Below, piece by piece: positions 242 to 22,960 of a stretch of DNA of 64,000 bases. This DNA comes from Zeus faber (taxonomy: Eukaryota > Chordata > Actinopteri > Zeiformes > Zeidae). Both the position numbers and the translations under genes were made by a program. Each line of letters starts with the position of its first letter. The first letter of the stretch is position 1. The stretch is from the NCBI GenBank assembly GCA_960531495.1, contig OY482851.1, positions 9,592,214 to 9,656,213 of the forward strand, in the 5' to 3' direction. The notes below the pieces were generated by a model. The model ran no database searches. It worked only from the letters and a program-made list of their open reading frames with translations, and had not been told where the DNA came from.

Positions 242-634
<393 letters not shown>

Positions 635-3010: not shown

Positions 3011-3871
3011 TCAAATATGTTGTTGTTTTTTTTGTTTTGTTCTCCAAACCGCTGCCCTCAGGGAGGGACTCGCCCACAGGTAGAGCCCCGGGGTGGACAG
3101 GATGTTGCACCGGGCTAGGATGCCCAGAGGACTCACCGCCTCATTTTCAGACATCAGACCCTTTCCAGTAATACGCCTGACGATCAGATTGAGCATGGAC
3201 GGCGACCAGAAAGCCAGGAAACACACCACCACCAGCACCACGATCTGCAGCGACTCCCTCTTGCTCTCCCTCTCCGCACTGGGCGGGTCCCTGTCGATTT
3301 GGTATTTGGCAACAACCAGCAGTTTAACAGTCATTGTTATTTTAGTCAGGATGATGATCTGCAGACTGATCAGGCTGTACACCTGGATCTGTATAGCTTT
3401 AGACAGCGGAAGCAGCCGCTGTATCAGCAGCTGGCTGTAGATGTGGAACCAGCAGTACACATTCATGGCTATGACGAAATAGCGAGTGATGAACCGGCTG
3501 TAGAAGAAGGGATGGCAGATGGCGAAGTAGCGGTCAAACTGTGCAAAGAGAAAGGTCAAGACATTCACACCGAGGAGGGATGATAAAATGTAAAAAGTTC
3601 CGTTTCTGGACGGAAAACCCACTCGCACGTCGAAGAGGCAGAGGTAAAAAACAGCCAGTCCGGACAGGGCGTCACTGATGCTGGTGTTGAGCATGAAGAT
3701 GAACCGGTTCTGGATCCGCAGCGCATGGGTGCGGAGGATGGCCACCGCAACACAACCAGCCAGGAGAACCGCGCTGGTTCCAAATAGTATGTGGAAGAAG
3801 AACAGCAAATAGTCCCCCACGCCGGCAAAGTCAAAAGCCAGAGGCACCAGCGTCAGATTGGCCAAAATCAT
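3011..3871 (-). CDS. single-exon rhodopsin-like GPCR, cluster copy 1
   Basis: An intact 286-residue seven-helix receptor. The N-terminus has a glycosylation site (NLT, residue 5). TM1 is about 20-45, TM2 contains NRFIFML and the sodium-site Asp (SISD, residue 67), and a second glycosylation site NGT (residue 90) lies in the first outer loop. DRY is at 113-115, FWSP in TM6 at 221-224 and TPGLY in TM7 at 260-264. There is no Cys at the top of TM3 or in the very short second outer loop, and TM5 lacks proline. An in-frame ATG exists at 3913, but a TATA-like box at 3922-3929 places the likely transcription start below it. The ATG at 3871 also matches the paralogues. The tail after AVW diverges into a Lys/Gln-rich end. 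Closest in the window to copy 2. It is an orphan class A receptor of the plasma membrane; ligand unknown. Fish genes annotated GPR148-like may be the same family, but I cannot verify that. Confidence 0.85.
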   Translation of the reverse strand: MILANLTLVPLAFDFAGVGDYLLFFFHILFGTSAVLLAGCVAVAILRTHALRIQNRFIFMLNTSISDALSGLAVFYLCLFDVRVGFPSRNGTFYILSSLLGVNVLTFLFAQFDRYFAICHPFFYSRFITRYFVIAMNVYCWFHIYSQLLIQRLLPLSKAIQIQVYSLISLQIIILTKITMTVKLLVVAKYQIDRDPPSAERESKRESLQIVVLVVVCFLAFWSPSMLNLIVRRITGKGLMSENEAVSPLGILARCNILSTPGLYLWASPSLRAAVWRTKQKKQQHI

Positions 3872-3921
3872 GATGACGCTGCACCCGTGATATACTGACT
3901 GTGTCCTAGTCAAGCCTAGGG

Positions 3922-3929
3922 TTTAAATA
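3922..3929 (-). promoter_or_regulatory. TATA-like box of receptor copy 1
   Basis: On the minus strand this reads TATTTAAA, 51-58 bases above the ATG at 3871. A homeodomain-type palindrome CATTAATG at 3968-3975 lies about 40 bases further upstream. The spacing suggests a transcription start near 3895, between the two candidate ATGs. Motif evidence only. Confidence 0.5.
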
Positions 3930-5440
3930 CAGCCCTGCTGCCGCGTTTCATAATTCTTGTGAGACTTCATTAATGCGGAGAGTTTTTTGCCTGAAGTTGC
4001 AGCCTCCAAGCGATCGCAAACGATCACAACAAATTTGTTTATTCAGCACCACGGACAGCAACTCCCTCTGGGGCCCTATTTAGGAAGCTGGATGCTAAAA
4101 AATAACCATGCATTGCCCCAATTAAGAAGTTTTATTTAAAAATGTATGATTTAAATCTCTGTTATAGGTGGTCTGCAGATAGCTGGACCAGCGTGAAAAA
4201 GTATACATACAATTCAGGTTTTTCCGCAACCTTAGTGGGTTCTTATACAAGAGGAGGCCCGAATAACAAAAACACTACATGAGAAATTATACAACATAAA
4301 ATGATCTAAATGTCCTGCATATGTTGACATGAGATTACTAGTAATCGTTGTATTAATATTAGTGGAAGTAATTGAACTAGTAGGCCTCACAGTACTAATA
4401 GTAGAAATAGTTGCAGTCGAAGTAGTAAAACTAGCAGTAAAGGGTAGTATTGCATCAGTAGTATCATAGCCATCAGTAGTAGTATAAGTAGTAGTAGTTT
4501 AAGTAGTAGTTGTACAAGTAGTAGTAGTAGTAGTTGTTGTTGTAATGGAATAGTACAGCAGTAATGGTAAGAACAGCAGCAGTATAATCTATAGTGGTGG
4601 TTAATACCATACTCCTGGGGTAATCTCTGTTTATATAATGTTCAGTGTTTTGTAATTCTTTCAACGCGAATGTACAACTGGACTCCAACATGTATAGGTT
4701 CTTGTAACTATATAATTGTTCTTATTATCGTCACTTCAGTCGCACATTCATTTGGCAGATGGACTAAACAAACTGTAACAGATGAACAGATAAAGTTCCT
4801 GACAAAGACTAACGCCTGTAACGGGGAAAAAAAGACATCTGAATATATATGCAAGCCAAATAATTATAATATTTTAAAAAGCTTTGTTCCAATATCAACT
4901 CCCCTGCGTCACATACCTTGTTGACCCTCGAAATCTAGTTTTAAGGTCTTGTGGTTTTCGTGGGCCACAAGCTGCGCTTCCTTATCTTCAAACACTATGA
5001 CAACGCGGATAAGGGTATAGATTGGAAGCTTATAGTCAGGTTAATTTCTTGTTTTGCTTGTTAAGTTAAATATCAACTTGAAATATCGGACTTGGCTAAG
5101 TGCAGAAAGTCAGAATATTCATCAGTCAGCCTCTTTCGAAATCGGCCTGTAAGTTGCTGGTTTGGTCTCCGGTTGACATTTTGGTTCAGATTCTTGTTTC
5201 AAAGTGAGTGACAAAATAAACTTCCGACTTCCTACACTCTCTGAAGAATGCCACAGCTCCAAGGTGCTTGAGCAAAAGGGCAAATAAAAATACCAGGCCT
5301 TAACAGGTGGAACATTTAGAATGAAGGATGATTATGAAAAAGCCCCAATTTGTATTTATTTTTAAAGTTAGAGTCACTAAAAAATTCCAAGAACAAGAAA
5401 TTGCCATCCAGATGAAAGGAACCAAACACACATAGGTGTA
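3930..5440. other. intergenic stretch with degenerate AGT-rich repeat, no gene seen
   Basis: This is the upstream flank of receptor copy 1. About 4370-4600 is a degenerate (AGT)n microsatellite. The rest is AT-rich without recognisable coding or RNA genes. Confidence 0.45.
4370..4600. repeat. degenerate (AGT)n microsatellite
   Basis: Repeated AGT units are broken by point changes; the purest run is near 4515-4533. Short reading frames here are repeat-driven Tyr/Asn runs. Confidence 0.6.
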
Positions 5441-7235
5441 AAGATAAAGACAAAGATGAAGATAAAGGTACTTTATTAATCCTCAAAGGGAAATTCCAGT
5501 GTTGCAACAGCAATGACATTCATGACAAAACACATATCATTTACAAAAACACACGTTGTTCAACAACGTGTGCCTTAATACATATAAAAGAACTAAACAA
5601 ATAAATAAATTGCAATAATAACAATAGAAATAAACAGAATAAAATAGAATTTAACTTAGTGAAAGGTAAAGCTTAAAAGTGGAAGTCAAATGTAAAGTAA
5701 AAATGTGCCTTGTGCATCGCCATTCAGAGGAGTTTCCTCCCCTGGCACAGGGCGGAGTCATTGTAGGTGGCTATTGCGGTGGCAGGAATGACCTCCTGTA
5801 ACCGTCCTTATTGCAGCGGAGCTGATGGAGCCTCTGACTAAAGACATTCTGTTGTCTGACCAGAAGGTTGTGTAGCGGGTCGCCCAGTGTTGTCCATTAT
5901 GCTGAGCAGCTTGTGCAACATCCTTCTCTCCACAAGCAGCTCCAGGGGCTCCGGAGCAGCCCCCAGCACAGAGCCAGCCTTCTTCATCAGTTTGTTCAGT
6001 TTCTTGGAGTCGCTGGCTCTAACGCTGGCTGCCCCAACAGATGGCTGCAAAGAATGTTGCGCAACAGACTGGTAGAAGATATGTAACATCCTGCTGCCCG
6101 CATTGAAGGACACTGAGCTTCCTCAAGAAGTTGAGTCTGCTCTGTCCCTTCCTGTAGACAGCCTCGGTGCTGCATTCCGAGTCCAGTCTGTTGTCCAGGT
6201 GAACGCCCGGGAAGCTGTAACCCACCACCGCCTCCACCTCTTCTCCCAGGTTGGAAACAGTGTTCGGGTCCCGGTCCTCCTGAAAATCCACAACCATCTC
6301 CTTCGTCTCAGTCGCATTCAAGAGGAGGTGGTTGTTTCCACACTGTGCCACAAAGCCGTCCACCGGTTCCCTGTACTCAGTCTCCTGTCCACCGGGGATA
6401 CACCCTACAACTGCAGAGTCGTCCGAAAATTTCCGCTGGTGACATTGCATTGGAAGTCCGAGGTATACGGGGCGAAGAGGAAAGATGAGAGTACAGTCCC
6501 CTGCGGTGCTCCTGTTTTGCTAACCACCCACTCAGACATAGCATTCCCTCAGCCGCACAAACTGTGGTCTGTCCGTCAGGTAGTCACTAATCCAGGAGGC
6601 TGTGGGGGCGTCCGCCCTCATCGCTTGGAGCTTCTCTCGCAGCAGTGCGGGCTGGATCGCGTTGAAAGTGCTGGAGAAATCAAAAAACGTGATCCTCACG
6701 GTGCGGCCTGCTTTGTGAGAGCGGGCCTGCCGAAGCAGGTCGATGACGACGTCTTCGACTCCAAACCTGGGGGCGGGGGGCAAACTGCAGTGGTTCCAGA
6801 GAGGTGCTCAACTGAGGTGTGAGACGGGCCAATATCAATCTCTCCAGGACTTTCATGATGTGTGATGTTTAGGCAACCGGTCTGTGGTCATTGAGGGCCG
6901 ATGGAGAGGACTTCTCAGGTAGCGGAACAAGGCAAGATGTCTTCCACAGCACTGGAACCTTCCTCTGGCTCAGGTGAAAGAGGCGCTGTAGAATCCCACA
7001 TCGCTGGTCCGCCAGACCTTCAGGACCCTGGGGCTGACACCATCCGGGCCCGCAGCCTTGTTCTGGTGCAGTCTCTCCAGTTGCCTCTTCACCTGACTAC
7101 AGGAAACAGATGGGCGGGTGGCGGAGGGAGGCTCTTTGTTGCTCTTAGGGGGGGGGGGGTTGTTGATGGGGCTGTATTGAAGTCCACGTGGGGGTTGGGG
7201 GTTGAGGGGAGGCACAGTGTGAGTCAATGATCAAA
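5441..7235 (-). mobile_element. decayed, 5'-truncated LINE (jockey superfamily, CR1/L2/Rex1-like)
   Basis: Reverse transcriptase pieces are readable on the minus strand in several frames. From the 5' side they include a palm-entry block with LHQNKAAGPDGVSPRVLK near 7020-7080, then FFDFSSTFNAIQP, WISDYLTDRPQFVRLR near 6550-6600, a degraded catalytic SDD, then KTKEMVVDF, GVHLDNRLD and DSKKLNKLMKKAGSVLG towards 5960. These are hallmark segments of fish CR1/L2-like LINEs. Several stops and frame changes break the ORF, so this copy is dead. The 3' end, at 5441-5490, has the usual short A/T-rich tail with GATAAA-like units next to TTTGAGGATTAATAAAGT. The endonuclease and the ORF start are missing, so it is 5'-truncated, the common result of target-primed reverse transcription. 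Clade assignment within the superfamily is uncertain. Confidence 0.8.
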
Positions 7236-8190
7236 ATGTAACTCAAAAGGTGTGGGTTTACACAGCATGTAGTGCTTTAAAATAAATATTCAAATTTAAT
7301 GTTGGCCTATTATTATATGATATATACATATTTGTTGCTTTAATATTGTTCGACTATAATTTTTTGATATGGTACTTTATGGTGCATTGCAGTACAATAG
7401 GCCTGTCATTTCAGTATCTGTCACGGACCACAAAATATAAATCTAATTAAGCATTCCTTAAAAGCTCCTGCAAACTATATACTAGGGCAGTCACCATTCT
7501 GACATTAAGCTGGCGATATACAAATACCAATAACTACAAATAATTGTGATTACAACTCAGTTGTCTTTTTTGGTTCATGGAATGACACTACCCCCAGTAT
7601 AAGCGCATAACCGTGCATACAATTTTATTAAATATAACATATAATTAAAAATGCTATGACCAAGACAATTTTGGAAAATTAATGTGGATTTAAATTGGTC
7701 AAGGATTAGCTACTGACAAATTCAGCATTTCTCCTGTGCTAAATACACTATGCATTTATTTAGGACAGACCTCGTATATTTAATTACTACAATGATTTAC
7801 GAAACGACAAATACTACACCCGGTTTGAATTTTATCGATAAAAAATATTTTCAAGAACAAAACCCAGGCCTCCAGACAAATCTGATTTCAAAAGACACAT
7901 GATTTAGGAACTATAGCGTGATTAATGTCATTAATGGTTCAGTTATAGCTCATTAAGTCAAATCACAAATGTGTGTTTCGTTACATGTTCATAGGCTTCA
8001 AACAAAATGAAATACTGTTTATACATAAGCACCTTTACTTATGGAGAGCAGATGCACCTTTATTTCAGCACAAAGGCTCAAAAGGCTCAACTATAGGTCA
8101 CATACATCTATATGGGCTATTATAATGAACAGTATTTAATATTTTTACCAATTAAAGAAAATCAACATTTGGATTGTTGGCCTTCTTTAA
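7236..8190. other. AT-rich intergenic stretch, no gene seen
   Basis: A very AT-rich region between the LINE and a LINE tail fragment. It has only short chance reading frames. No RNA gene or clear repeat family is recognised. Confidence 0.45.
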
Positions 8191-8250
8191 TCAGAATCAG
8201 AATCAGAATCAGAAATACTTTAATAATCCCAGGGGGAAATTACATAACAC
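8191..8250 (-). mobile_element. LINE 3'-end fragment with (ATTCTG)n tail
   Basis: Read on the minus strand, AATTTCCCCCTGGGATTATT is followed by AAAGTATTTCTG and about four ATTCTG units. This is the typical 3' terminus of fish L2-like LINEs or of SINEs that share that tail. Only the tail is recognisable. Confidence 0.65.
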
Positions 8251-10049
8251 ATCATATTTAATTTGAACATCTGTCGATGTGAAAATAATACGATTGCAAA
8301 TTTACAGATCCACCAGCTTATAGTCAAGTAACCTTGAATTATATTTTTTTGATTATTAAAGTGCAATTACATACAGGATTTCAATCATGAAAGCAATGCT
8401 TTTAATGACGACAACAACTCTATTCAACTCATTTATTAAAAAAAAAGCTTTGCTAAATTTATTTTTTATTTTATTAATGCAGTGTTATAAACCTTTATAC
8501 AATTTTATACAGTAAGTTTCATGATTAACATTTTTTATTGGCTGAGGAATTTCGTTTCTGAAGTCACCACAGGGGTACTGCTCCACTCACTTTCTACCAC
8601 ATGGTTGGAGCTTTTGTCGCATAAATTTCACAATCTAATGTTTTCTTGTGTTAACACTAAGTTTAAATAATGACACGTGTGCTTCTTGCAAAGCAGCTTT
8701 GGATAAAAGCTGCTAAATTACATAAAGCAAGGGATCAGCAGGTTGCTTGTCACTTTTGTTTTGTTTTCAAAATCCACATTTTTCTGTTATAGGGCGACTA
8801 CAAGATGGATGGGAACAGATATAGTGTGGCATTTATTAGACGTACATCTAAATGTGAGTACATTCATCTCATCAATCTGAAGTTATGTAGCTATGCTTTT
8901 TTTTGTTTGTTTGTTTGTTTTTTGGACAAGTGACCCACTTCAAGAGAAGTCACTTGCCGCAGAAATGAAACCAAGCTGTTGCTTTTACAACGCAGTTAGA
9001 ATTTGAGCCCAAAACAATACCTTAACTGAGAACGTCAGCTCCAAAATTAAGCCAGTTGCTTTGACTCAGTCACAACATCTACCGAATAGAAGCACAAGTG
9101 TATATTCTGCAATGAGCAATATACTGGGGAAAAAAGGGTTGCAAAGGCAGTTGAGAGGAAGCAAATATTTATCATTTTAATCCCAAATCAAACACGTGAA
9201 CGGGGAATCAGTGTTTGTTCATTCAGCTCAATGGCACACAATGATTTCATCCCAATTCATATCCAGGTGTTTTCTCTCTGTCTATATGCCGTGTGACTTT
9301 AAAGTTTTTACTACAACAACAACTACTCCCATTTGCCATAAATAGGATGAATCATTTTGGTCCTCACACTGTGTTTATATAAACACACAAACACACTTAA
9401 CATACTACTACTTCCTTCGGTTATGGTTAGTATAACATTTAATTGATATCTTCGTTATCAGATCTTGGTCCTTGTGCTTATATTATAGTAACGCAAAGTT
9501 ATAGATGCAGGCGTATGATCTTGAAATGCCTCGTTCAGTCTATTCGTTCCCATCGATGCACAAACCATGGTTTTGTGTTTCTGTAATAAGTATAAAATGC
9601 AGCCTCTCATTGCGGTCAATGTGGAATCCCCAAAGTCACTCCGTCCCCCTTCGCAGCTCTACAAGGGAAAGATTGTTGTTCAGAATGATTAGAAACTGTT
9701 AAAAATGCCCCAAAAACCTTAAGTCATCCATTTGAATTCGTGATTCCCTTCTCACAATTAAAAATAATACTAATAATTAACTCATACCACAACAAACAGA
9801 AAACAATAACTACAATGAAAACATTCTTGATACGCATGGAATAATCTGAAAGTAAAAAATGAGGCGTCCCGTGAAGCTTTGATATTTTTAATCCCTATCA
9901 TACTGACCTTTCCTTCCTAGCTCTCATTTAAAGCCCTTACCAGTCAAAACAAATGTTTAAATTCACTCGGTGGCAAAGGACCCAGATGATGCTTTAGAAA
10001 GCCATTGCGCCTGTTTTTTATAAGAATATAATACAGTATATATATAATT
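8251..10049. other. AT-rich intergenic stretch with repeat remnants, no gene seen
   Basis: Downstream flank of receptor copy 2. It contains a likely transposon remnant near 8687-8880 and a short TTTG run near 8903-8920. Otherwise it is unique-looking AT-rich DNA without coding signals that I can support. Confidence 0.4.
8687..8880. repeat. probable fish interspersed-repeat remnant
   Basis: The block CAGCTTTGGATAAAAGCTGC followed by TAAAT resembles the very common fish repeat terminus 'CTTTGGATAAAAGCGTCTGCTAAAT'. About 150 bases on, AATGTGAGTACATTCATC also resembles a segment near 56763-56790. Family and borders are uncertain. Confidence 0.4.
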
Positions 10050-10988
10050 TTAAGAATAATATTGGTTTGTGGGACAGTTTAATTTCGTTTTCCAGTCGCA
10101 CGGAACAAACCTCTTCCTTCCCCGGCAAGGAAACACTCTGCTCCAGACGGCGGCCCAGGCCGCGGCCCTCAGGGAGGGACTCGCCCACAGGTAGAGCGAT
10201 GGGGTGAAGATCGCGTTGCTCCTGGAGAGAATACTGAGCGGATTCGTGGCTTCGTTTCTAATCACTAAACCCTTTCCCGTGGTTCGTTTCACCACGGTGT
10301 GGACTACCGCCGGGGACCACAGGGCCAGAAAAAACACGACCACCACTATTATGATCAGCAGGGACTCTTTCTTGCTGTCCCTCTCTGGGCCTGGTGGGTG
10401 TCTGGCCAGCTGGTATTTGGCCACAATGAGCAATTTGATGGTCATGGTTATTTTGGTGTAAACGATGATCTGCAGACAGACCCTGCTGTACAACTCGATC
10501 TGTATGGCCTCTGACAGCGACACCACGTGCTGGACGAGCAGCTGCCCGTAGACGTGCAGCCAGCTGTACAGGTTGACGCACACCACCAGCCGCCTGCTGC
10601 CGAACCTGCTGTAGAAGAACGGGTGGCACACGGCGGCGTAGCGGTCGAACTGCGCGAACAGGAAGGTCATCATGTTGACCCCGAGCAGCGAGGGCAGGAT
10701 GTAGAACGTCCCGTTCCTGGACGGGAAGCCGATCCTCACGTCGAAGAGGCAGAGGTAGAACACCCCGCAGCCGCTGAGCGCGTCCGCCAGGCTGGTGTTG
10801 AGCATGAAGAGGAAGCGGTTCTGCCGCAGCAGCGGCGGGGTCCGGGCGATGGCGAGCAGCACCGAGCCCGACACCAGCGCCGCGCCGCCGCCGAACAGCA
10901 CGTGGAAAAGGAAGAGAAGGTAGTCCCCGGGACCCACGAAGCCCACGGAGAGGGGGACCCGCTGGCTCACATTGACCGGGGCCGGCAT
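10050..10988 (-). CDS. single-exon rhodopsin-like GPCR, cluster copy 2
   Basis: An intact 312-residue receptor paralogous to copy 1. Glycosylation sites are NVS (residue 6) and NGT (residue 92). NRFLFML leads into TM2, DRY is at 115-117, TM6 has LWSP and TM7 has TPSLY followed by LWASPSLRAA. Like the others it lacks the TM3 and ECL2 cysteines. The intracellular tail is the longest of the set and carries several Cys and basic residues (CRGRKR, CDWK, NCPTNQ), so palmitoylation is possible. An open frame extends upstream to 11213 through an Arg/Pro-rich stretch, but that crosses a TATA-like motif at 11072-11079 and has no counterpart in the paralogues, so I take the ATG at 10988. The coding sequence is strongly GC-rich against its AT-rich flanks. 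Ligand unknown. Confidence 0.85.
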   Translation of the reverse strand: MPAPVNVSQRVPLSVGFVGPGDYLLFLFHVLFGGGAALVSGSVLLAIARTPPLLRQNRFLFMLNTSLADALSGCGVFYLCLFDVRIGFPSRNGTFYILPSLLGVNMMTFLFAQFDRYAAVCHPFFYSRFGSRRLVVCVNLYSWLHVYGQLLVQHVVSLSEAIQIELYSRVCLQIIVYTKITMTIKLLIVAKYQLARHPPGPERDSKKESLLIIIVVVVFFLALWSPAVVHTVVKRTTGKGLVIRNEATNPLSILSRSNAIFTPSLYLWASPSLRAAAWAAVWSRVFPCRGRKRFVPCDWKTKLNCPTNQYYS

Positions 10989-11071
10989 CCCTCGGTTGTG
11001 CTCGAGGAAGCCGGGGGGGGCGCGGCGGGGAGTGGGCTGGACGGGGAATGGGACGCGCTGGATTCGGGGCC

Positions 11072-11079
11072 TATTTAAG
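11072..11079 (-). promoter_or_regulatory. possible TATA-like box of receptor copy 2
   Basis: Minus-strand CTTAAATA lies about 84 bases above the ATG at 10988. It is a weaker match than in the other copies, and the surrounding region is GC-rich. Low confidence. Confidence 0.3.
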
Positions 11080-11289
11080 CTCCGTCTCGGCGTGTGACGG
11101 CGTCGGCGGGGACTGCGTACGAAGTCCGTGACGCGACGGAATTCGAATGCACGGCGTGGAAGGGCGTGGAAGGGCGTGGCGGACTTTTCCTCTTCTTCTT
11201 CTCCCCATCCCATCTTAGTTAGTGGAGAATCAGCTTTTTCTAACTGAAACTATGGCCTGGCCTGCTGCTCAAACATTTATATTTAAACG

Positions 11290-11334
11290 TAAATAGATAA
11301 ACAAACTAACAAATAATAAAAAAAAAAAAACGAA

Positions 11335-11365
<31 letters not shown>

Positions 11366-11635
11366 ATAAATAAATAATATAAATAAATAAATAATATAAA
11401 TAAATAATATAAATAAAAGAATGAATGAATGAACGAATGATTGAACAGATGAACAAATACATTTAAAAAACAAGCAAATAAATAAATAAACAAACAAATA
11501 AATCAATAAATAAGTAGATGAATGAATGAATGAATGAATGAATGAATGAATGAATGAATGAACAGATAAATAAAGCAACAAATAAATAAACAAACAAACA
11601 AACAAATAAAGACATAAATACAACAGTATAAATGA
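11290..11635. repeat. tetranucleotide microsatellite cluster (AACT, AAAT, GAAT)
   Basis: Compound low-complexity tract: poly-A, then (AACT)n near 11334-11365, (AAAT)n-like stretches and (GAAT)n near 11518-11562. Reading frames here are repeat artefacts. Confidence 0.85.
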
Positions 11636-11804
11636 TCAAATTTTAATAATAATCAAATCATTGTAAGATGTAATTTTACATTCAGACAACAGAGCATCTC
11701 CTCTCATTTTGGCTTTCACAGCCATTTTGTGCCTTTTTTACAATTTCACACTTGCAAGGCCCCATTTGTCCATGACCATCTATACTCAGTATATATACAG
11801 TTTG

Positions 11805-11810
<6 letters not shown>

Positions 11811-11881
<71 letters not shown>
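11811..11881. repeat. (TA)n microsatellite, about 35 units
   Basis: An uninterrupted TA tract. It directly abuts a LINE-like 3' UTR segment. Confidence 0.95.
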
Positions 11882-11883
<2 letters not shown>

Positions 11884-12789: not shown

Positions 12790-12797
12790 TTCTAGTG

Positions 12798-13494: not shown

Positions 13495-13830
13495 GTGCAC
13501 GGGCCTGCTGCTGCTGCTGCTGCGGGCGGGAGCGTCGTCTTGGTGGGGGAGTGGTACCAAGACGGGCTCTGCGCCGAGCGGCCTCCCTCGGGGTCCGGGC
13601 TGCCCCACGCGTACCGGGACGGCGTGCACGCCGCGTTCGACCGAGCCGTGGCGGCGGCGAAGGGGTTGGTGCCCGCTGCAGGGCTTCCGCGCCCGGGATC
13701 CCGGCGACCACTGTGTCAGTTCGTGGCGAACAGGACGTGGAAAGTCAAGATTAGTGGTCGAGCTCCGCCGCGAGGGGCAGCGGGCCCACGCCCCCGCGGG
13801 CGGAGGCGCCGTGCGGTTGAGGGACCGCAT
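13495..13830 (-). pseudogene. internally deleted receptor pseudogene of the GPCR cluster
   Basis: On the minus strand two ends of a receptor remain. The start reads MRSLNRTAPPP near 13830, like the MMLFNTT start of copy 4. The beginning of TM1 (FHVLFAT) near 13718-13738 runs into a stop. The next recognisable part is the loop before TM7 and TM7 itself, GTNPFAAATARSNAACTPSR, then YAWGSP, near 13590-13670. About 600 bases that would encode TM2-TM6 are missing, and the frame changes between the pieces. After WGSP the sequence loses similarity and enters a (CTG)n-like run. The NAACTPS and WGSP wording is closest to copies 3 and 4. It is clearly a dead gene and shows local birth and death in the cluster. 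Confidence 0.75.
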
Positions 13831-14057
13831 CGTCGCGGTTCGTCCGGGGGTGTAGTTTTGCCGCGGTTTATGTGTCGTTTACCCCGAGAGACACGTGGCC
13901 CGGTGACACGATTCCCACACGTAAGCATCCATTCAAAACGACACTGCATTTTAAAATACCTCCTATAAAAGTATGTTCAATTCAAAGAGTGTGTATGGCT
14001 GACATTTTGTCGATTTTATAATTTTATATTTTATTGATTTTATTTCATTGAGTTTTT

Positions 14058-14059
<2 letters not shown>

Positions 14060-14103
<44 letters not shown>

Positions 14104-14150
14104 TCTGTGTGTGTGTGTATATGTATGTGTGTGTATATATTTATATATAC
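14060..14150. repeat. (TG)n microsatellite
   Basis: TG tract with a few interruptions, grading into TATA-rich sequence. Confidence 0.9.
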
Positions 14151-15733
14151 AATTGTAATATATTATAGTAATGATCATGATCATAATCATAATAATAAGA
14201 ATTAGAATAAACAACTTTTTTCACAAGAATTTGAGGGAAGCATCTTTCAACCCAGCCCTTATTAAAATGTTGGTTCCCATCATTTCCAACTGTCAATTTC
14301 ATAACCTTGTTGAAAGATTTACTATACCTACCTTTTTTGAAAACGGTAAGCTCACAGTAGAGAGTCGAAAAACAATTGACAGAATCTGTGCATCAGGTTT
14401 ATCAATGTTTTATTGTTTTGCTCTTCCGCAAATCAGCTCTTTTGACTACATCTGCGCTAAGGTAAGGGACTAGAAACAGGACGTTGCGCCCTTCTTTATA
14501 CTGACACGTGCTTTGGATGTACTGTACTGCAGTAGTTAGTTAGATGTACTGCTAAATAGCTCCCATAATTCCTTCAAACTCTGACCACAGATATAGGTTT
14601 GAAAGGAACTATGTCACTTACTTATATGTAAGTAAAAGTGTGAAAGCAATATTTAAAGTCGTTGTAAAGGTGAAAAAAAGTTGTCTCTTGGCAGCTAGTC
14701 TGCTTCACTTTACTGCCTCAGATAAGACGTTAGACAGCGTTTGTCTGATCTGAAAGGCATTTTGAATGCTTAAAAGCTCTTTGGTTCCGTCTCATCTATT
14801 CATATAATGATTGCTCTAACAAATGCTTGTTACTATTTTGCAACAGGCGCGGAATCGCATAATAAACATGACATGCTCTTATAACCGCTCTGGATCTTAA
14901 TCCCACACGTCCATTCCTTTATTAAAAACACATGTCATTATACCAACTTGCATGAATCAAGCTACATCATGCAATTATTAAAAAAAAATAAAATATAAGT
15001 AGAGATCCAGAAAATAAGGCAGCCCCACAGCAAGTTGAAAGGTCAAAAAGAGGTCATCTGAATCTTTGTGGGCTTAGATTCGACCTTTTTCTGTGCAATT
15101 TTTCTGTATACAAATACTCATCACTTTCATTACATTTCATATTAGGCGTGGCTGCTTGGAACCTAAGTCAAAGAAGTACATGGAGAAGTTTAAGAAATGT
15201 GGTACAGTAGGTTGGAAATGTGAAAATGTCAAGGCCGAAAGGTAACTTCATTTTCGTCATTGAAGGGGGTTCTTTTTTATGCTAAATAAATAGGCTTTTA
15301 TAGATCAAAGAAAAGGGTTATTGGATCAATATTTCTTCAATTTATTAAACAAATACATATTTTAGGTTTTCTAAACTTAAAGGTGAAAAATTATGAGTAC
15401 ATTTTAAGTAAAGGTAACCTAAAAAATATAGGTTTAACAAACTGAAACATTATTTGAAGTTTATCTAATGACTCCAATCAGATGTTTGTTTCAGTGGCTT
15501 AAACATTTATGAAGTCCTATCTGGAACATCCGGATCTCATTTTAAAAAGTAAATAAGTAAACCTGATTTTGTCCCATTGATTTGGTCTCAGCCCCCTCCA
15601 TGATGGTGATATGAGGAATAGAGAATAGGGTAGAACAGTGCATTAGAATGGAATAATAAATATATTTATTTTTCGGTGCCGGTGAACTGTCCATGAACCA
15701 AACACATCTCTCCCCTTTCCACGATGTTACCTC
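14151..15733. other. AT-rich intergenic stretch, no gene seen
   Basis: Downstream flank of receptor copy 3. A 100-codon open stretch near 14171-14473 begins in Ile-rich repeat sequence and has no family I recognise. No repeat family or RNA gene is identified. Confidence 0.4.
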
Positions 15734-16624
15734 TTACCTCCCCCGGCCCCGGGGACAGACTCGGCCCCACACGGACCTCAGCGCGGCCCCCTGCAGCGCC
15801 GGACTCCCCCAGATGTACACGGACGGCGTGCACACCGCGTTGAACCGGGCCATGATGGCGAACAGGTTGGTGGCCTCGTTCTCGAACCGCAGGCCCCGGC
15901 GCACGACGAGCCGCAGGACGATGTTGACGAACGAGGGCAGCCACAGCAACAGGAAGCTGACCACGACGAAGATGATGATCCTCAGGGACTCCCTCTTGGC
16001 TTCCCGGTCCGCGCTCGGCGGGTCCCGGTCCAGCTGGTACCTGGCCACGACGTACAGCTTGACGGTCATCGCCACTTTGGTGATCACGACAATTTGCAAG
16101 CTGACGACGCTGAACGCGTGCATCTGCGTCGATTTGGAGAGGGGCAGGAAGTTCCTGACGAGCAGCAGGAAATAAACGTGGAACCAACAGTATACGTTCA
16201 CGGCGATGACCAGCCGCCGGGTGATGAAGCGGCCGTAGATGAACGGGTGGCAGACCGCGACGTATCGGTCAAACTGCGCGAACAGGAACGTCATGATGTT
16301 GACGCCCAGCAGCGAGGGCAGGACGTAGAACGTCCCATTCCTGGACGGGTAGCCCTCCTGGACGTCGAACAGGCCCAGGTAGTACACGGACAGGCCCACC
16401 AGCGTGTCGCAGATGCTGGTGTTGAGCATGAAAATGAACCTGTTCTGGAAGAGGAGGGATTTGGTGCTCAGGATCCCGACCACCACGGTGCCGGCGACGA
16501 GGACGGTGGTGGTGGCGAAGATCAGCTGGAAGATGAAGACGCAGTACTCCGCCGGGCGGTCGAAGTCGAACAGCAGGGACGCGCCGCTGACCACGGGCCG
16601 CTCTATGGTGTTGGAAGTGGGCAT
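15734..16624 (-). CDS. single-exon rhodopsin-like GPCR, cluster copy 3
   Basis: An intact 296-residue receptor. NRFIFMLNTS opens TM2, the first outer loop contains VQEGYPSRNGT, DRY is at 119-121, TM6 has LWLP and TM7 reads CTPSVYIWGSP. The third inner loop has the family motif DPPSADREAKRES. TM3 and ECL2 cysteines and the TM5 proline are absent. The frame is open up to an ATG at 16732, but that lies above a good TATA box (16659-16665), so the ATG at 16624, which aligns with the paralogues, is preferred. This leaves a very short 5' UTR of roughly ten bases. It is closest to copy 4 (shared YYLGLFDVQEGYPSRNGT). The tail is short and Arg-rich. Ligand and tissue are unknown; it should sit in the plasma membrane and couple to G proteins through DRY. 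Confidence 0.85.
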   Translation of the reverse strand: MPTSNTIERPVVSGASLLFDFDRPAEYCVFIFQLIFATTTVLVAGTVVVGILSTKSLLFQNRFIFMLNTSICDTLVGLSVYYLGLFDVQEGYPSRNGTFYVLPSLLGVNIMTFLFAQFDRYVAVCHPFIYGRFITRRLVIAVNVYCWFHVYFLLLVRNFLPLSKSTQMHAFSVVSLQIVVITKVAMTVKLYVVARYQLDRDPPSADREAKRESLRIIIFVVVSFLLLWLPSFVNIVLRLVVRRGLRFENEATNLFAIMARFNAVCTPSVYIWGSPALQGAALRSVWGRVCPRGRGR

Positions 16625-16658
16625 CGTTTGGAGCGCGCACCACAGACCGTAGGTGCGC

Positions 16659-16665
16659 TTTATAA
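16659..16665 (-). promoter_or_regulatory. TATA box of receptor copy 3
   Basis: Minus-strand TTATAAA lies 35-41 bases above the ATG at 16624. An ATTAAT core (16709-16714) and a CACGTG E-box (16701-16706) lie 35-55 bases further upstream. Confidence 0.6.
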
Positions 16666-17610
16666 CGCGGAGGAATCGACCCCCCGAAGTCCCCACCCAC
16701 CACGTGGTATTAATTTTGTCAGGATTCGCCACTGCCCAGATTTATCCACCCACCGTTCTATGGACTCCCTGGATCCCACTGAACCGAATCGTTTTAGTTC
16801 GTTTATGAAACTATAATAAACTGTATGAAAACAAATCCACCTTATATTATTATTAATGGCACTAACCTTGAAATAAAACGGTGATATAAAATGAGGTTAT
16901 TTTAACACACATATTTGTTCTGTTCAAAATAGAGGGATTAGAAATTACACTTTAAGTTGAGGAAACCTAGAAAAAAACGATATAGGTTTAAAGGATCAAA
17001 AAAACATGAAGTTAATCAAACGACTCCAATCTATTGTTTTTTTTGTTTTTTTTTTGTTTTTTTTACAGATTACCGGTAAATCAATGTAGTAAGGGCCTAA
17101 TGGCCTGTAACGGCCTATGAATATAAACCGTAATTTTATTAATGTTGTTTTATTTTTCTATGTACGAAAAACGTAACTTTCCCTTTGGTAAAATGTTTTC
17201 TTGAGAAAACAAACAAACAAAAATGGTTTAACAAATAAAACATATATATCCATCTTGTTTCCACTGTATTTACAAATATGCCTCGGAAATACAACGTGCA
17301 TTTCCCATTAAGCCAATATAGCTCAGACATCTCATTCAAATATCGTGTTCACCATCGAGTGAAGTAACACGGATTTAAAAAAGACGACTAATAGATTGCG
17401 TAAATAATTTGAAACCCAAGATTTGGATTCACTATCATGTCCCTTAAAATGCTATTTCATTATAAACGTATTAACGTTGATTGATAAGATTCAAGATAAT
17501 CCTCCTCCTGCGAATAAGTTTGGCCTTAACGTGCCAAACATGAACGCACGCATGTTTTAATGTACATTCAAAACCGTTTAAGAAATAGGCATTAAAATAA
17601 ACAAATGAAA

Positions 17611-17685
17611 TAATAATAATGATAATAATACTACTAATAATACTACTACTAATAATAATACTAATAATACTAATAATACTAATAA

Positions 17686-17716
<31 letters not shown>

Positions 17717-17830
17717 AAGAAGAAGAAGAAGAAGAAGAAGAAGAAGAAGAAGAAGAAGAAGAAGAAGAAGAAGAAATAAATAATAATAATAATAACAACA
17801 GCAACAACAACAACAACAACAAAAACAATA
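17611..17830. repeat. compound (AAT)n-(GAA)n-(AAC)n microsatellite
   Basis: AAT/ACT units lead into about 29 pure GAA units at 17689-17775, then AAT and AAC units. The GAA part is a long polypurine mirror repeat. Confidence 0.95.
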
Positions 17831-18358
17831 TATGTGCCTTTCATGAAACCCAAGGACAGGTGAACTTCAAATGAGGTTAATTGTCCAAAGGTTGAACGGG
17901 TGTTGAACATTTCATTGAACGAGATATACAAACACAAGCTCCAAATCCGACTTTTTACAATACAACGTAGTTCTATAATGTCTGCATGTAGACCACCATG
18001 TTTTGTGCAAAGCCTGAAATGCACTATTTGGGCTTCATAAATAACCAAAAATAACTAGAACATCATAACGGAGCGTGTAACGATATGTGTGGTTCATTAG
18101 ATTTCTTCTGTCAGGACCAAACAACTCGTTCGTTCCAAACCCAAATTTGAAAATGATTCGACTTATTTCCACGGGAGATTGCTGTCACAAGCTTAAAGAG
18201 CTGTTTGTCCGTAATCTCAGTGTCAGTGAGGGCCTCACTAACACGGTCCTCACCGTGAGGGCCTCATGGTGCCTTGTTTACGGTGCTCGATTTATGATGC
18301 GAGTTATTTTCCAAACCGCACTCTGCGTCACCCCATCACGTTTAATGCCAATTCTGTT

Positions 18359-18359
<1 letters not shown>

Positions 18360-18412
<53 letters not shown>
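18360..18412. repeat. (GA)n microsatellite
   Basis: About 26 GA units. A shorter GA run follows near 18495-18508. Confidence 0.95.
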
Positions 18413-18418
<6 letters not shown>

Positions 18419-19468
18419 AAGATGGTCAGATCACACTTTAAACACTCAGCTAGGCAGCAGTAGATGCTGATAGAACAAAAAAAAAAAAAGACGGAAAGAG
18501 AGAGAGATGAAAACCATTGTCTACGAAGTACACTACCCTGATCTACTGGAATAAAACTCAATATTCAGATAAAAAAAAAAAAAACTGGAACCGATGAAAT
18601 TAATAAACAGACATATACACAGCACCTATTTCTAAATAAATGTGTTCTGATCTTTACTTTTAAACTTTCCATATAGGCCTACATGATGAACAATGAAGTT
18701 CTGTGTAATAGGTAAATAAATCAGTGAATTAGGTCTAAAGTTGGTAAAGCCGGGCTTCTCAAGTGTGGCCCATGCATTAATGCACAGTGACTTGAAACCC
18801 TTTGAATACATTTCAAGGTAAGCAGTGAACAGCAGTTACACTCGTTTAAGAAAAGTACCAACAACCACATGACTATGTACATATACAATGTGCATTTAAG
18901 AATATACCGCTTGAGAGAATATTATCCAGAGAAACGTAATCGCTCATTTTAAGCTGTTTTATAAATTGGTGAAGATAATTTGAAGAAAATTAAGGTTGTT
19001 TTTGCATTTTCGATTTCGTTGCAACACGCTCAACAATGAAATTTGCTTATTGAATTAGCCAGGCCCCTGAGTCAGTAGGAGGTTGGGGAACCTGGCCCCC
19101 AGCTGGATGCATGCATAACTTCTGTATAAAGCCCTATAGTCCTTCAAAATCTTCCCGGTGGTCTTTGTAGTGTACACACAACCAACACACAAGAGTAGAT
19201 TTGTTTCCAAAACCACCATGAAACGCTTGGTTTTCCTGCAGCAGTGGCCTAAGTACAGACGTGGGCCCAGTGGCCGCTAGAGGCCCATCCCATAGGCGCT
19301 GTCAGCGATGGGGCGCCCGCTGTGCGTCCCCGTTCCTCCAAATAAATAAGAAAAAAACAGTGTGTTTTTGTTTTAGATGTGGGCTATTTTATCTTACGGA
19401 GGTTCCTCACGAAGCACCGATGGGGGACACTTACGGGGGGACACTTTCCCGGACACTCTCCCGCAGAC

Positions 19469-20335
19469 TCACCTCCTCCGCCGGGGCCACACCCTGCGCC
19501 ACACCGACCTCCACACCGCCTCCCGCAGTGACGGGCTGCCCCAGATGTACAGAGCCGGGGTGACCAGGGCGTTCACCCGGGCCAGGATGGCGAACAGGTT
19601 GGTGGCTTCGTTGTAGAACCTGAGACCCCTTTTGGTTAACTGTCTGACGATAATGTTAACGAAAGACGGACACCAGAGCGCCAGGAAACAAATGACCACG
19701 ATCACGATGATGCGCAGGGACTCCTTCTGTTTGTCCCTCTCCATGCTGGGAGGCTCCCGCCCCAGCTGATTTCTGGCTATGATATACAATTTAATAGTCA
19801 TCAGTACATTGGTGAGAACTATGATCTGGAGGGTCATCACTCCAAAAGCATTAATTTGCGCCGCCTTGGAGATGGGCACCATGTTCTGCACCGTAAGTAT
19901 GAAGTAGGTGTAGATCCAGCAAAATGCACAAATGCCGACGACGAACGACCGGGTGATGTACCGGTTGTAGAAGAACGGGTGACACACGGCGAGGTAGCGG
20001 TCGAACTGGGCGAAGAGGAAGGTCAGCACGTTGACCCCCAGGAAGGAGGGCAGGATGTAGAAGGTCCCGTTCCTGGACGGGTAGCCCTCCTGGACGTCGA
20101 AGAGGCCCAGGTAGTACACGGAGAACCCTGTGAGCGTGTCGCTGATGCTCGTGTTCAACATGAATATGAACCGGTTCTGCACCCGGAGATATTTGGTGCT
20201 GAATATCCCGACGACCACGGAGCCGGCGAGGAGCACCGCGCCGGTGGCAAACAGGATGTGGAAGATGAAGATGAAGAAGTCTGCCGGGCTGTCGAAGTCT
20301 ACCGACAGAGGGACGGTGGTGTTGAAGAGCATCAT
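19469..20335 (-). CDS. single-exon rhodopsin-like GPCR, cluster copy 4
   Basis: An intact receptor of 288 residues from the ATG at 20335 (20332 and 20353 are alternatives; 20353 is too close to the TATA box). Glycosylation sites are NTT (residue 5) and NGT (residue 89). TM1 is about 19-43. TM2 has NRFIFML and Asp66. DRY is at 112-114, CHPFFYNRYITR is in the second inner loop, the third loop is short with EPPSMERDKQKES, TM6 has LWCP at 220-223 and TM7 has TPALY at 259-263. The conserved TM3/ECL2 cysteine pair is missing. The tail is short and basic (RRVWPRRRR). It is closest to copy 3. The gene is GC-rich in AT-rich flanks. It is an orphan receptor, probably functional given its complete frame and conserved DRY. 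Confidence 0.85.
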   Translation of the reverse strand: MMLFNTTVPLSVDFDSPADFFIFIFHILFATGAVLLAGSVVVGIFSTKYLRVQNRFIFMLNTSISDTLTGFSVYYLGLFDVQEGYPSRNGTFYILPSFLGVNVLTFLFAQFDRYLAVCHPFFYNRYITRSFVVGICAFCWIYTYFILTVQNMVPISKAAQINAFGVMTLQIIVLTNVLMTIKLYIIARNQLGREPPSMERDKQKESLRIIVIVVICFLALWCPSFVNIIVRQLTKRGLRFYNEATNLFAILARVNALVTPALYIWGSPSLREAVWRSVWRRVWPRRRR

Positions 20336-20373
20336 GGCGAACCACCCCCCCAAAGTCTTACGGATCTATTGGT

Positions 20374-20381
20374 CTTTATAG
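20374..20381 (-). promoter_or_regulatory. TATA box of receptor copy 4
   Basis: Minus-strand CTATAAAG lies about 40 bases above the ATG pair at 20335/20332. Three ATTAG homeodomain cores are packed at 20453-20473, about 70-100 bases further upstream. Confidence 0.6.
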
Positions 20382-21990
20382 ATCCGTCCTTCCAGATCAC
20401 CAAGCTCCAGGAATACCCTGATGGATCTCTGGGGGTAAACGTCACGGTGCCAATTAGGAATTAGGCCAATTAGGCCTCTCCGGCAAAATGCCCCACCGGG
20501 GGGGTTGTATTGATGAAATGTTTACCACTAGACGTGAAGGCCTGGCTGGTCTCCATGACAGGCTGTGGTGATCCAGGGTGTGACACCAGCCAACCTCAAA
20601 ATGTGTATATTTTTGTAAATAATAACTTTGGACGACAGCCATGATTCTCAAGTATCCTCATTTTGATAACCAGTAGGACACAGACGCATTAATAACCAAA
20701 AATGTATGAGTTCCAAGAACTTGAATATAACAGAACCACAGACACCAAGTTTCATATAAACAGTATTTTTGCACTATATACAATTATTCCACCGAATAAA
20801 ACATTGAGTGCAGTAATCAAAATACACCAGTACGAAAAATAAAATCAAAAATGTTTTTATAACTGCATTGCCAGTGGTTCCAGTCATTCAAGATACTCTA
20901 AAAAAACAATAAACTAAAAGTTAAAATTGTCCAACTGTACTGGGGCCTTTCAACCATGCATTGGTTAGCTTTAGGATACAGGTTTTTAGGCCTGGAATAA
21001 ATAATTCTCTAAAGATTGCATTAGGAAATAACCAAAAGAACCCGAGAGTATAAAAGGTCAATGTTTTTGTTAAAAAGATGCACCCTGTTAGTTGGCTGGC
21101 TGAAGGTCAGATGAATGATGAGGAAATAAGGAATATATTTGAAAAACACAATTCTAAATGACATTTTCCTACAGACATAATAAAACCTTTCTCACCCCAA
21201 AACTGAACAAATTGATGCAACAAGCACTCCCGCTCCCTTTAGTGCAGCACACAGCTGGCATAAATGCAAGACAATTCAAAGGGTTAGGAAATAAGACTGT
21301 TGACTGAAAGCATACAGCCTCCAGGTGTAGGCCATATATTTTGAAGGATTTTAGCCTCTTGAACAAAACATAAATCAAGGCCTGTCATAGTCCACAATTG
21401 AATGGATGCATCCGATTTTAACCTCATCAGAAAGATAACAAGGAACCGTTATGCTCATGTGTATCTACAGTATGATGCTGTACAGACTTCAGGCTGATCT
21501 ACTCCTGCAAATAACAGAGACTATGAGACCACCAGTGGGCGCCATAATCTTGGATTTCTGTCGCGCTGGAGACTGCCGCGCTGGTCCAGTCTGTCTATTT
21601 TACAAGCCTAATCTTGAGATGAGAAACATGTGACGCCAATATTCCTGTTTCATTTAATTTGATATGTGCATCGTTATTTTTCTTTATTTTCCTTATTCAC
21701 TTTTTTTAAAATCAAATCCTGATCTTTTAATTTCAGATCATCTTAGTGGGTTCCAATCAGCACTGATGCTTTTAAAACCCATAAAACAATAAGTATGCAG
21801 CATCTTGTATAAAACCCACGATTAAACAATATGGAATTAGCTGCAATTTCTGTTTTTTTGTTTGTGTGTTTGTGTGTTCGTTTTGTCTAAGTACACGTAA
21901 CAGCAACCTTGTCACCTTGTTAATGAATTCATTGGAGTCACCCCTGTCGCTGTTTCCTTGTCAACCCCCAGCCCGGTTTGCATATCAACC
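20382..21990. other. intergenic stretch between the divergent receptor copies 4 and 5
   Basis: This gap separates the minus-strand copy 4 and the plus-strand copy 5, so it contains both promoters. The middle is AT-rich with short chance frames only. I recognise no gene or repeat family. Confidence 0.45.
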
Positions 21991-21992
21991 CG

Positions 21993-21999
21993 TATAAAT
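21993..21999 (+). promoter_or_regulatory. TATA box of receptor copy 5
   Basis: TATAAAT lies 92-98 bases above the ATG at 22091. Upstream are an octamer-like TTTGCATA (21977-21984) and a perfect 12-bp palindrome AATGAATTCATT (21922-21933) with homeodomain half sites. A CA-rich 5' UTR follows. Confidence 0.55.
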
Positions 22000-22090
22000 C
22001 AGGGTGCGGGGCCTCCTGTCTGTGGGTGCTGAACACACACACACACACCCCCCCACACACACACACACATCCCCCTGCATATCTGCATCC

Positions 22091-22960
22091 ATGAGTAACG
22101 GCAGCTTCTTCCCGAGCCCCGCGCTGCCCCTCACGTCCTTCGGCAACGTGCTGATGTTTCTCTTCAGCGTCTCTCTGGCGACGGCGATCGTCTTCCTCAA
22201 CGTGTCGGTGCTGCTCTCCATCGTGAGCGACAAGTCGCTCCGCAGCGAGAACCGCTTCATGTACATGCTGAGCACCTGCTGCAGCGACATCTGCACGGGC
22301 GCCTCCTACTATTACGTCGGCGTGCTGGACGTGAAGGACCACTTGAACTCCCCCACCAGAACCTACTACATCGCGCCCACCTTCCTGGGCCTGTCCTACA
22401 TGGCCATCCTCGCGGCCCAGGCGGACCGCTACCACGCGGTGGCCGCGCCCTTCAAGTACTCCCAGCGAATGACGCGCAACAGGACGCTGCTGGTCATCCT
22501 GGCCTACTGGCTCTACGCCTTCGTCATCGTGGCGGTCAACAACCTGGTGACGTTGGGGGTCGCCCTGCGGGTCACCGGCATCGGCACGTTCGTGGGCAAC
22601 ATGTTCACGGTGGTCATCATGATCGGCCTGAACATCCGGCTGTTCTTCATCGCCACGTTCCAGCTGAACAGGGAGCGTCCCTCCGCGGAGAGGGACAGCA
22701 AGCGCGCCTCCATCTACCTGGTGGTGGTGGTGGCGGTCTGCTTCCTGGTGGCCTGGCTGCCCCTTTTCATCCACGTCATCGTGTGCACTTTCCTGGGCTC
22801 CACGTGTTACTCGGTTCAGAACGAGGGCACCGACCCCATCCGCATTTTGCCCCGGATCAACGCCGCCGTGACCCCCATACTGTACACCAGGGGGTGCGGC
22901 GCGCTTAGGGCGACGCTGCTCGGCAGGGTGTGGAGGAGGCCCCGCTGCTGCGGGAGGTAA
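22091..22960 (+). CDS. single-exon rhodopsin-like GPCR, cluster copy 5 (divergent, opposite strand)
   Basis: An intact 289-residue receptor. The open frame continues upstream to 22004 through a CA-repeat-encoded His/Thr run, so I start at the ATG before SNGSFF (glycosylation site NGS, residue 3). It keeps the family skeleton: SENRFMYML into TM2, Asp66, DRY at 112-114, RERPSAERDSKRAS in the third inner loop, AWLP in TM6 and VTPILY in TM7. It lacks the SRNGT glycosylation site of the other copies and the W(A/G)SP after TM7, having YTRGCGALRA instead. TM1 has LNVSV, so an Asn near position 1.50 may be kept where the others have Ala, Ser or Gly. As in the others there is no TM3/ECL2 cysteine pair. 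An AATAAA at 23161-23166 could end the transcript. Probably an ancient sister within the family. Confidence 0.85.
   Translation: MSNGSFFPSPALPLTSFGNVLMFLFSVSLATAIVFLNVSVLLSIVSDKSLRSENRFMYMLSTCCSDICTGASYYYVGVLDVKDHLNSPTRTYYIAPTFLGLSYMAILAAQADRYHAVAAPFKYSQRMTRNRTLLVILAYWLYAFVIVAVNNLVTLGVALRVTGIGTFVGNMFTVVIMIGLNIRLFFIATFQLNRERPSAERDSKRASIYLVVVVAVCFLVAWLPLFIHVIVCTFLGSTCYSVQNEGTDPIRILPRINAAVTPILYTRGCGALRATLLGRVWRRPRCCGR

What the first reader, a model, noticed from the sequence alone, without database searches (positions are those of the whole stretch)
3011..22960. Tandem cluster of a poorly known single-exon fish GPCR family
Five intact receptors and one pseudogene lie within 20 kb, all single-exon, with a shared and distinctive sequence skeleton (NRFIFML, DVQEGYPSRNGT or DVRxGFPSRNGT, CHPFFY, ER(D/E)xK(K/R)ES, TPxxY-W(A/G)SP). 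I cannot place them in a named ligand class. Tandem, intronless, unequal pairs and a dead copy are the pattern of chemoreceptor-like expansion, but the short tails and missing disulfide are more like lipid or peptide MECO-type receptors. Ligand, tissue and coupling look open.
Basis: partly seen in the sequence, partly recalled or inferred. Interest (0 to 1): 0.8.

Follow-up and report, generated by a model that had tools for sequence, protein, structure and literature searches.

The report
Unnamed two-branch fish receptor family
This fish carries a small cluster of cell-surface receptors whose relatives sit in bony-fish databases under dozens of conflicting names, resemble no characterised receptor closely, and share a charged pocket residue that looks very unusual for their class, so their signal molecule is an open and testable question.

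Summary
The observation largely holds. Within 20 kb lie five intact, apparently single-exon class A GPCR genes and one decayed relic. Four (R1-R4, minus strand) share the quoted skeleton. The fifth (R5, plus strand) has none of the five motifs and is only 33-40% identical to them: a sister subfamily. In the window's own 803-Mb genome these five stand alone before a wide gap. Every species named in three capped hit lists is a teleost, from Paramormyrops and Megalops to percomorphs, under more than 30 conflicting names. No tree puts the family inside a sampled, characterised subfamily. The combined lack of the TM3 cysteine and the TM5 proline is shared, in a 117-sequence panel from the same genome, only with melanocortin, S1P and cannabinoid rows; but trees cannot decide between that side and odorant receptors. 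New here: Arg at 7.43 (the opsin lysine position) in 319 of 320 members and 0 of 117 panel receptors, Thr at 7.49, and an Asn at 1.50 in one subfamily but at 3.39 in the other. Best guess: a conserved orphan family for an acidic, lipid-like ligand, with faster-evolving paralogues. Ligand, tissue and coupling are not shown.

The parts
3011..3871 (-). R1, class A GPCR, subfamily A, 286 aa
   Evidence: open frame; Pfam 7tm_1 35.5 bits; skeleton motifs; clade of four with P0241 (Polymixia), P0242 (Centroberyx) and P0245 (unnamed contig) in the 320-row tree
10050..10988 (-). R2, class A GPCR, subfamily A, 312 aa from the ATG at 10988 (frame open up to 11213)
   Evidence: open frame; 7tm_1 36.8 bits; R2 clade of 29 rows
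13581..13752 (-). relic of a subfamily A receptor: TM7 piece next to weaker TM1 pieces, middle missing, one stop in the TM1 piece
   Evidence: TM7 piece 53.6 bits against at most 31.9 in 200 shuffles; TM1 pieces 31.0 and 25.6 bits, in order
15734..16624 (-). R3, class A GPCR, subfamily A, 296 aa
   Evidence: open frame; 7tm_1 50.6 bits; R3 clade of 40 rows
19469..20335 (-). R4, class A GPCR, subfamily A, 288 aa, the slowly changing member
   Evidence: open frame; 7tm_1 62 bits; 421 homologues at E<=1e-3; 7TM model, mean pLDDT 77.5
22091..22960 (+). R5, class A GPCR, subfamily B, 289 aa
   Evidence: open frame; 7tm_1 58.5 bits; 253 homologues at E<=1e-3; related to subfamily A
36125..37903 (+). 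right-hand neighbour: HIC2-type BTB/zinc-finger gene (coding exon)
   Evidence: best solved chain 'Hypermethylated in cancer 2 protein' 7txc, E 1.8e-74; BTB and C2H2 in Pfam
241..632 (+). left-hand neighbour: last exonic pieces of a gene that looks like PRADC1
   Evidence: recognised by eye in the sequence (name recalled, not searched)

Best explanation
The cluster is one locus of an old, apparently unnamed teleost family of class A GPCRs made of two sister subfamilies (A: R1-R4; B: R5). SHOWN: the family, its spread over many teleosts, its isolation in this genome, its conserved residues, and the short R4 versus long R1-R3 branches. INFERRED: the proteins are working G-protein-coupled receptors (DRY, W6.48, P6.50 and Y7.53 kept). 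They have a MECO-like, almost lidless outer face (no TM3-ECL2 disulfide, no P5.50, TM4-TM5 loop of about two residues). The invariant Arg7.43 low in the binding pocket, with a hydrophobic residue at 3.32 instead of the amine-binding Asp, most likely anchors an acidic, fairly hydrophobic small ligand (a lipid-like carboxylate, phosphate or sulfate). R4 and R5 would be the conserved receptors, and R1-R3 tandem copies whose outer (ligand-facing) half has diversified towards related ligands.
For: In the 803-Mb genome R4 finds the five window genes (39-65% identity to R4 for the other four, E 6e-54 or better) and then a gap to a somatostatin-type receptor, 28%, E 2e-6; R5 finds the same five and then E 2e-5. 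Homologues at E<=1e-3: 421, 253 and 426 (best 120 listed each; species names seen are all teleosts to my knowledge, taxonomy not looked up). A and B genes carry consecutive locus tags in Channa argus (Car011243/011244), Aplochiton (007812/007813) and Pampus (022015-022017) (names). Arg7.43 in 319 of 320 rows, Thr7.49 in 318 of 320; in the panel 0 of 117 have Arg7.43, one has Lys (rhodopsin), three His (pattern check on 116 of 117). C3.25 in 0 of 320 and P5.50 in 0 of 320 rows; absent together in the panel only in the MCR, three S1PR and two CB1 rows. 3.32 is Leu in 194 of 200 A rows and Val/Ala in 119 of 120 B rows. Precedent in print: in the thromboxane receptor the T7.43V mutant loses activity, likely for lack of a hydrogen bond to the agonist, and a conserved TM7 arginine (7.40) meets the prostanoid carboxylate (PMC13039517, two passages). 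Trees. Model. Mean root-to-tip from the A ancestor 0.21 (94 R4-group rows) against 0.78 (73 R1-R3 rows). Outer TM halves more variable than inner ones in R3 (0.71 v 0.44 bits, p 0.004) and R1/R2 (0.91 v 0.65, p 0.005), not in the R4 group (p 0.84).
Against: No ligand, expression or coupling data exist here. Arg7.43 may be structural rather than a ligand contact. The panel is not complete: no adenosine, LPA1-3, GPR3/6/12 or GPR119 row was recognised in it, the nearest MECO kin by name. The free 46-row tree joins the family to odorant receptors (85/65), and the best outside place for R5 lies in the same C18 region as odorant receptors fetched with R4; the second is one of them. The outer/inner contrast treats sites as independent and ignores the tree; subfamily B shows no significant contrast (p 0.11), and the consensus change R3 v R4 is not biased to the outer half (33 of 97 v 26 of 103, p 0.21), only R1/R2 v R4 is (50 of 97 v 34 of 103, p 0.01). 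Model confidence is low in ECL1 (residues 81-92) and the R5 model is poor (58.6).
Confidence: 0.42

Rival explanations
1. Chemosensory receptors: the cluster is a small olfactory or pheromone receptor family, R1-R3 being its expanding part, and pocket diversity tracks odorants.
For: Tandem, intronless, a relic; long R1-R3 branches with variable outer TM halves; copy number varies, for example four B rows with one Megalobrama contig length and four A rows with one Megalops contig length; the free tree joins odorant receptors (85/65).
Against: R4-group rows have short branches and R4 and R5 relatives are found across teleosts; the odorant and TAAR rows of the panel have C3.25, absent here; the family is small (five in this genome). 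No expression data.
Confidence: 0.25
2. Arg7.43 is a built-in cation: it salt-bridges Asp2.50 or another acid inside the helix bundle, replaces the usual sodium ion, and sets high or ligand-independent basal signalling.
For: The residues around Asp2.50 are altered: Ala1.50 and Asn3.39 in subfamily A (195 and 200 of 200), Asn1.50 and Ser3.39 in B (120 of 120 each), Thr7.49 in both (318 of 320), while D2.50 is invariant (320 of 320).
Confidence: 0.18
3. A divergent member of a known MECO subfamily (melanocortin, S1P/LPA, cannabinoid), fast-evolving enough to escape recognition.
For: Shared loss of C3.25 and P5.50; family+MECO not rejected, p-AU 0.243; MECO side at 85/97 with nine rows removed; GPR119, CB1, S1P3 and ACTH-receptor chains among the PDB profile hits.
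Against: Stem of 2.7-3.4 changes per column; in none of three trees does it fall inside MCR, S1PR or CB1; PDB profile hits are below 40 bits and mixed: GPR183, CB1, 5-HT1E, A2A.
Confidence: 0.08
4. It is one of the clades already listed, without function, by Rinne et al. 2019 (PMC6504862), for example GPR188 near the adenosine receptors.
For: That paper counts 28 likely new orphans; [quoted passage not shown] Several sources name R5 relatives 'adenosine receptor-like'.
Against: Ensembl identifiers in the paper could not be turned into sequence here, so neither shown nor excluded; adenosine receptors have C3.25 (recalled), which this family lacks.
Confidence: 0.2

Closest known systems
MECO/MECA receptors (melanocortin, S1P/EDG, cannabinoid)
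   Same: no C3.25, no P5.50; short TM4-TM5 loop in the R4 model (short in melanocortin receptors as recalled); tree position compatible
   Different: Arg7.43, Thr7.49, loss of N1.50 in subfamily A; outside the sampled subfamilies; no profile match of 40 bits or more to a solved chain
Fish odorant receptors (class A OR)
   Same: intronless, tandem; among the best BLAST neighbours of R5 and weak tree neighbours
   Different: odorant rows of the panel have C3.25; this family keeps W6.48 and D2.50; only five genes
GPR148
   Different: human GPR148 as recalled matches R1-R5 at E 0.02 or worse, but its best panel row (an amine-type receptor) at E 1e-8; the recalled sequence has C3.25 and no DRY
GPR188 and other unnamed clades of Rinne et al. 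2019
   Same: fish-rich orphan class A clades without human orthologue
   Different: identity with our family not testable here
Rhodopsin
   Same: a basic residue at 7.43
   Different: lysine for retinal there (recalled); arginine here; not grouped with the rhodopsin row in the two trees that held it
Prostanoid receptors
   Same: a conserved TM7 arginine for an acidic ligand (7.40, PMC13039517, passage)
   Different: position 7.40 not 7.43; no prostanoid row was recognised in the panel or trees

Membership tests
Class A (rhodopsin-like) GPCR | Pfam 7tm_1 above gathering score | tested here: met
   35.5-62 bits, cut-off 30.5, five of five
Class A (rhodopsin-like) GPCR | D2.50, R3.50, W4.50, P6.50, P7.50, Y7.53 | tested here: met
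   D2.50, R3.50, W4.50, P6.50 and Y7.53 in 320 of 320; P7.50 in 319 of 320
Usual, not defining, class A residues | N1.50, C3.25, P5.50, N/D7.49 | tested here: not met
   C3.25 and P5.50 in 0 of 320, T7.49 in 318 of 320, N1.50 in 0 of 200 A rows but 120 of 120 B rows
MECO (melanocortin/EDG/cannabinoid) | joint absence of C3.25 and P5.50 | tested here: met
   in the panel only MCR, S1PR x3 and CB1 x2 of 117 rows share it
MECO (melanocortin/EDG/cannabinoid) | falls in one clade with them | tested here: inconclusive
   85/97 after nine rows were removed; not in the free 46-row tree but not rejected, p-AU 0.243
Odorant or TAAR chemoreceptors | falls inside their clades | tested here: not met
   beside odorant rows (15, 85/65) but not inside; apart from TAAR rows
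Odorant or TAAR chemoreceptors | expression in chemosensory neurons | not testable with these tools
   no expression data
GPR148 | closer to GPR148 than other class A receptors are | tested here: not met
Rinne 2019 clades (GPR188 and others) | same sequences as the cited Ensembl proteins | not testable with these tools
   identifiers could not be resolved (Results read)

The most novel reading that the evidence does not exclude
A teleost signalling system without a close characterised relative, built on a class A receptor type whose pocket floor carries an invariant arginine at the opsin lysine position and whose sodium-site asparagine sits on different helices in the two subfamilies (1.50 in B, 3.39 in A). 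The arginine either anchors an undescribed acidic ligand or replaces the sodium ion as a tethered cation.
Probability: 0.3. Interest if true: 0.75.

Novelty: new variant of a known kind. Interest (0 to 1): 0.52.

Why it matters
Databases call relatives of these genes by more than 30 incompatible names (GPR183-like, GPR15-like, C5a, S1P3, opioid, TAAR, CysLT2, MC4R-like, adenosine A1-like and so on; my count by eye of the lists), so a fish expression or ligand study that meets them is likely to misread them. A clean two-subfamily definition with a diagnostic signature (R7.43, T7.49, no C3.25, no P5.50) lets them be pulled out and deorphanised together, and offers a natural experiment on how a class A receptor works with its sodium-site residues rearranged.
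Full report
WHAT IS THERE. Window 3011-22960 holds four class A GPCR frames on the minus strand (R1-R4) and one on the plus strand (R5), all above the Pfam 7tm_1 cut-off. R1-R4 are 56-66% identical; R5 is 33-40% identical to them but certainly related (hhalign probability 100, 38% over 277 columns). A relic at 13581-13752 keeps a clear TM7 piece (53.6 bits; best of 200 shuffles 31.9) next to weaker TM1 pieces (31.0 and 25.6 bits) in the right order. The left neighbour looks like the end of PRADC1 (by eye); the right neighbour is HIC2-type. Differences between paralogues are fewest at second codon positions, for example R3-R4 0.31/0.14/0.41 at positions 1/2/3, as expected under purifying selection; dN/dS was not computed.

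THE FAMILY IN THIS GENOME AND BEYOND. The window lies at C7:9592214-9656213 of an 803-Mb genome. A search of that genome with R4 finds the five window genes (the other four at 39-65%) and then a gap: the next place is a somatostatin-type receptor at 28%, E 2e-6; R5 gives the same five and then E 2e-5. The tool scores only the best candidates and ignores introns, so counts are lower bounds. Protein searches gave 421 (R4), 253 (R5) and 426 (R1+R2 profile) homologues at E<=1e-3; the best 120 of each were listed, and the species named there are all teleosts to my knowledge, including Paramormyrops, Megalops, Conger, Anguilla, Danio, salmonids, gadids and percomorphs. Source names conflict widely. 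Consecutive locus tags put A and B genes side by side in Channa, Aplochiton and Pampus, so the cluster is old. Lists were cut at 120, so absence from non-teleosts is not shown.

HISTORY. In a FastTree tree of 320 rows subfamily A has a slow R4 group (94 rows, mean root-to-tip 0.21 from the A ancestor) and an R1-R3 group (73 rows, 0.78). Among these rows R1 has three close relatives (Polymixia, Centroberyx, one unnamed contig), R2 28 and R3 39. Two anchovy-type rows (Coilia, Engraulis), a Prochilodus row and one unnamed row sit at the base of R1-R3; nine elopomorph or mormyrid rows (Megalops, Conger, Anguilla, Paramormyrops) join next (0.955), but a smaller tree leaves such rows unresolved against R4, so the order of the oldest duplications is open. 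The outer halves of the helices vary more than the inner halves in R3 and R1/R2 but not in the R4 group; the consensus change from R4 is biased to the outer half for R1/R2 (p 0.01) but not for R3 (p 0.21) or B (p 0.38). This fits, but does not prove, diversification for ligands.

SIGNATURE. On the 320-row alignment: D2.50, R3.50, W4.50, P6.50 and Y7.53 in 320 of 320; P7.50 319; D2.64 319; Thr7.49 318; Arg7.43 319; C3.25 and P5.50 in none. Position 3.25 is Arg/Lys in 198 of 200 A rows and Pro in 119 of 120 B rows. Subfamily A has Ala at 1.50 (195 of 200; the window's R2 has Ser) and Asn at 3.39 (200 of 200); subfamily B has Asn at 1.50 and Ser at 3.39 (120 of 120 each). In a panel of 117 class A sequences of the same genome, 110 have N1.50 (the other seven have a gap there), 111 C3.25, 102 P5.50 and 113 N/D7.49; none has Arg7.43, one (rhodopsin) has Lys and three have His (pattern check on 116 of 117). 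The six panel rows without C3.25 are the melanocortin, three S1P and two CB1 rows, and all six also lack P5.50. An N-glycosylation sequon starts next to position 3.25 (N89 in R4) in 193 of 200 A rows. Panel names are mine, by eye.

PLACEMENT. A 77-row quick tree and a 46-row careful tree both recover the family at full support on a long stem (2.7-2.9) and join it to odorant receptors at 15 and 85/65, with a long-branch warning. Holding family+MECO together costs 1.1 log units (p-AU 0.243); family+amine p 0.045; family+peptide/purine p 0.030. With five odorant and four other long rows removed, a choice made after seeing the first tree, the family is on the MECO side at 85/97, outside MCR, CB1 and S1PR, which hold together at only 80/52; family+amine p 0.037. 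PDB profile searches give mixed class A rows below 40 bits. So: a separate family, perhaps MECO-side, not inside any sampled subfamily. Adenosine, LPA1-3, GPR3/6/12 and GPR119 rows were not in the trees.

STRUCTURE. The AlphaFold model of R4 (31-row alignment) has mean pLDDT 77.5, seven helices plus helix 8, TM4 129-152 and TM5 from 155, that is a two-residue loop where most class A receptors have a longer ECL2 (recalled); ECL1 (81-92) is low confidence. The R5 model is poor (58.6). Foldseek and VIA do not discriminate among class A receptors.

FUNCTION. Kept activation residues argue for G-protein signalling. No amine-binding Asp3.32, an open outer face and an invariant basic residue low in the pocket argue for an acidic, hydrophobic small ligand; this is inference. 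Precedents: the T7.43V mutant of the thromboxane receptor loses activity, likely for lack of a hydrogen bond to the agonist, and a conserved TM7 arginine (7.40) meets the carboxylate in prostanoid receptors (PMC13039517, two passages). Chemosensation and a tethered-cation, ligand-independent mode are the main rivals.

KNOWN OR NEW. Rinne et al. 2019 (PMC6504862; Results and Discussion read) list many fish orphan clades; ours may be among them (GPR188 is a candidate by description) but the identifiers could not be resolved. Nine literature searches listed no paper recognisable by title as describing this family; one search showed ten of 684 matches, and only openly licensed papers are held.

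Noticed in passing
window 5700-7200: Stretch between R1 and R2 that by eye looks like a decayed non-LTR retrotransposon (LINE) fragment on the minus strand; not searched.
   Followed up: no
upstream of R1-R5 (about -40 to -98 from each ATG): TATA-like boxes before all five start codons, which would leave very short leaders; individually not rarer than chance.
   Followed up: partly
subfamily B in cyprinids (lists): R5-type rows share one contig length in Megalobrama (4), Labeo (3) and Ctenopharyngodon (3), while Megalobrama has one listed R4-type row; Conger has two of each. Same contig is inferred from equal contig length.
   Followed up: partly
G000 as a whole: 803 Mb; the matches listed lie on contigs C1-C22 and the closest proteins are in Polymixia and Centroberyx: probably an early acanthomorph. 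From memory the size resembles the John Dory genome; not tested.
   Followed up: no
window 25300-25700: GC-rich stretch about 2.4 kb after R5 that by eye looks like the promoter and first exon of the HIC2-type gene; not tested.
   Followed up: no
P0121 (Labeo rohita): A 493-aa database model holds pieces of two R5-type receptors; an annotation artefact by its look.
   Followed up: no
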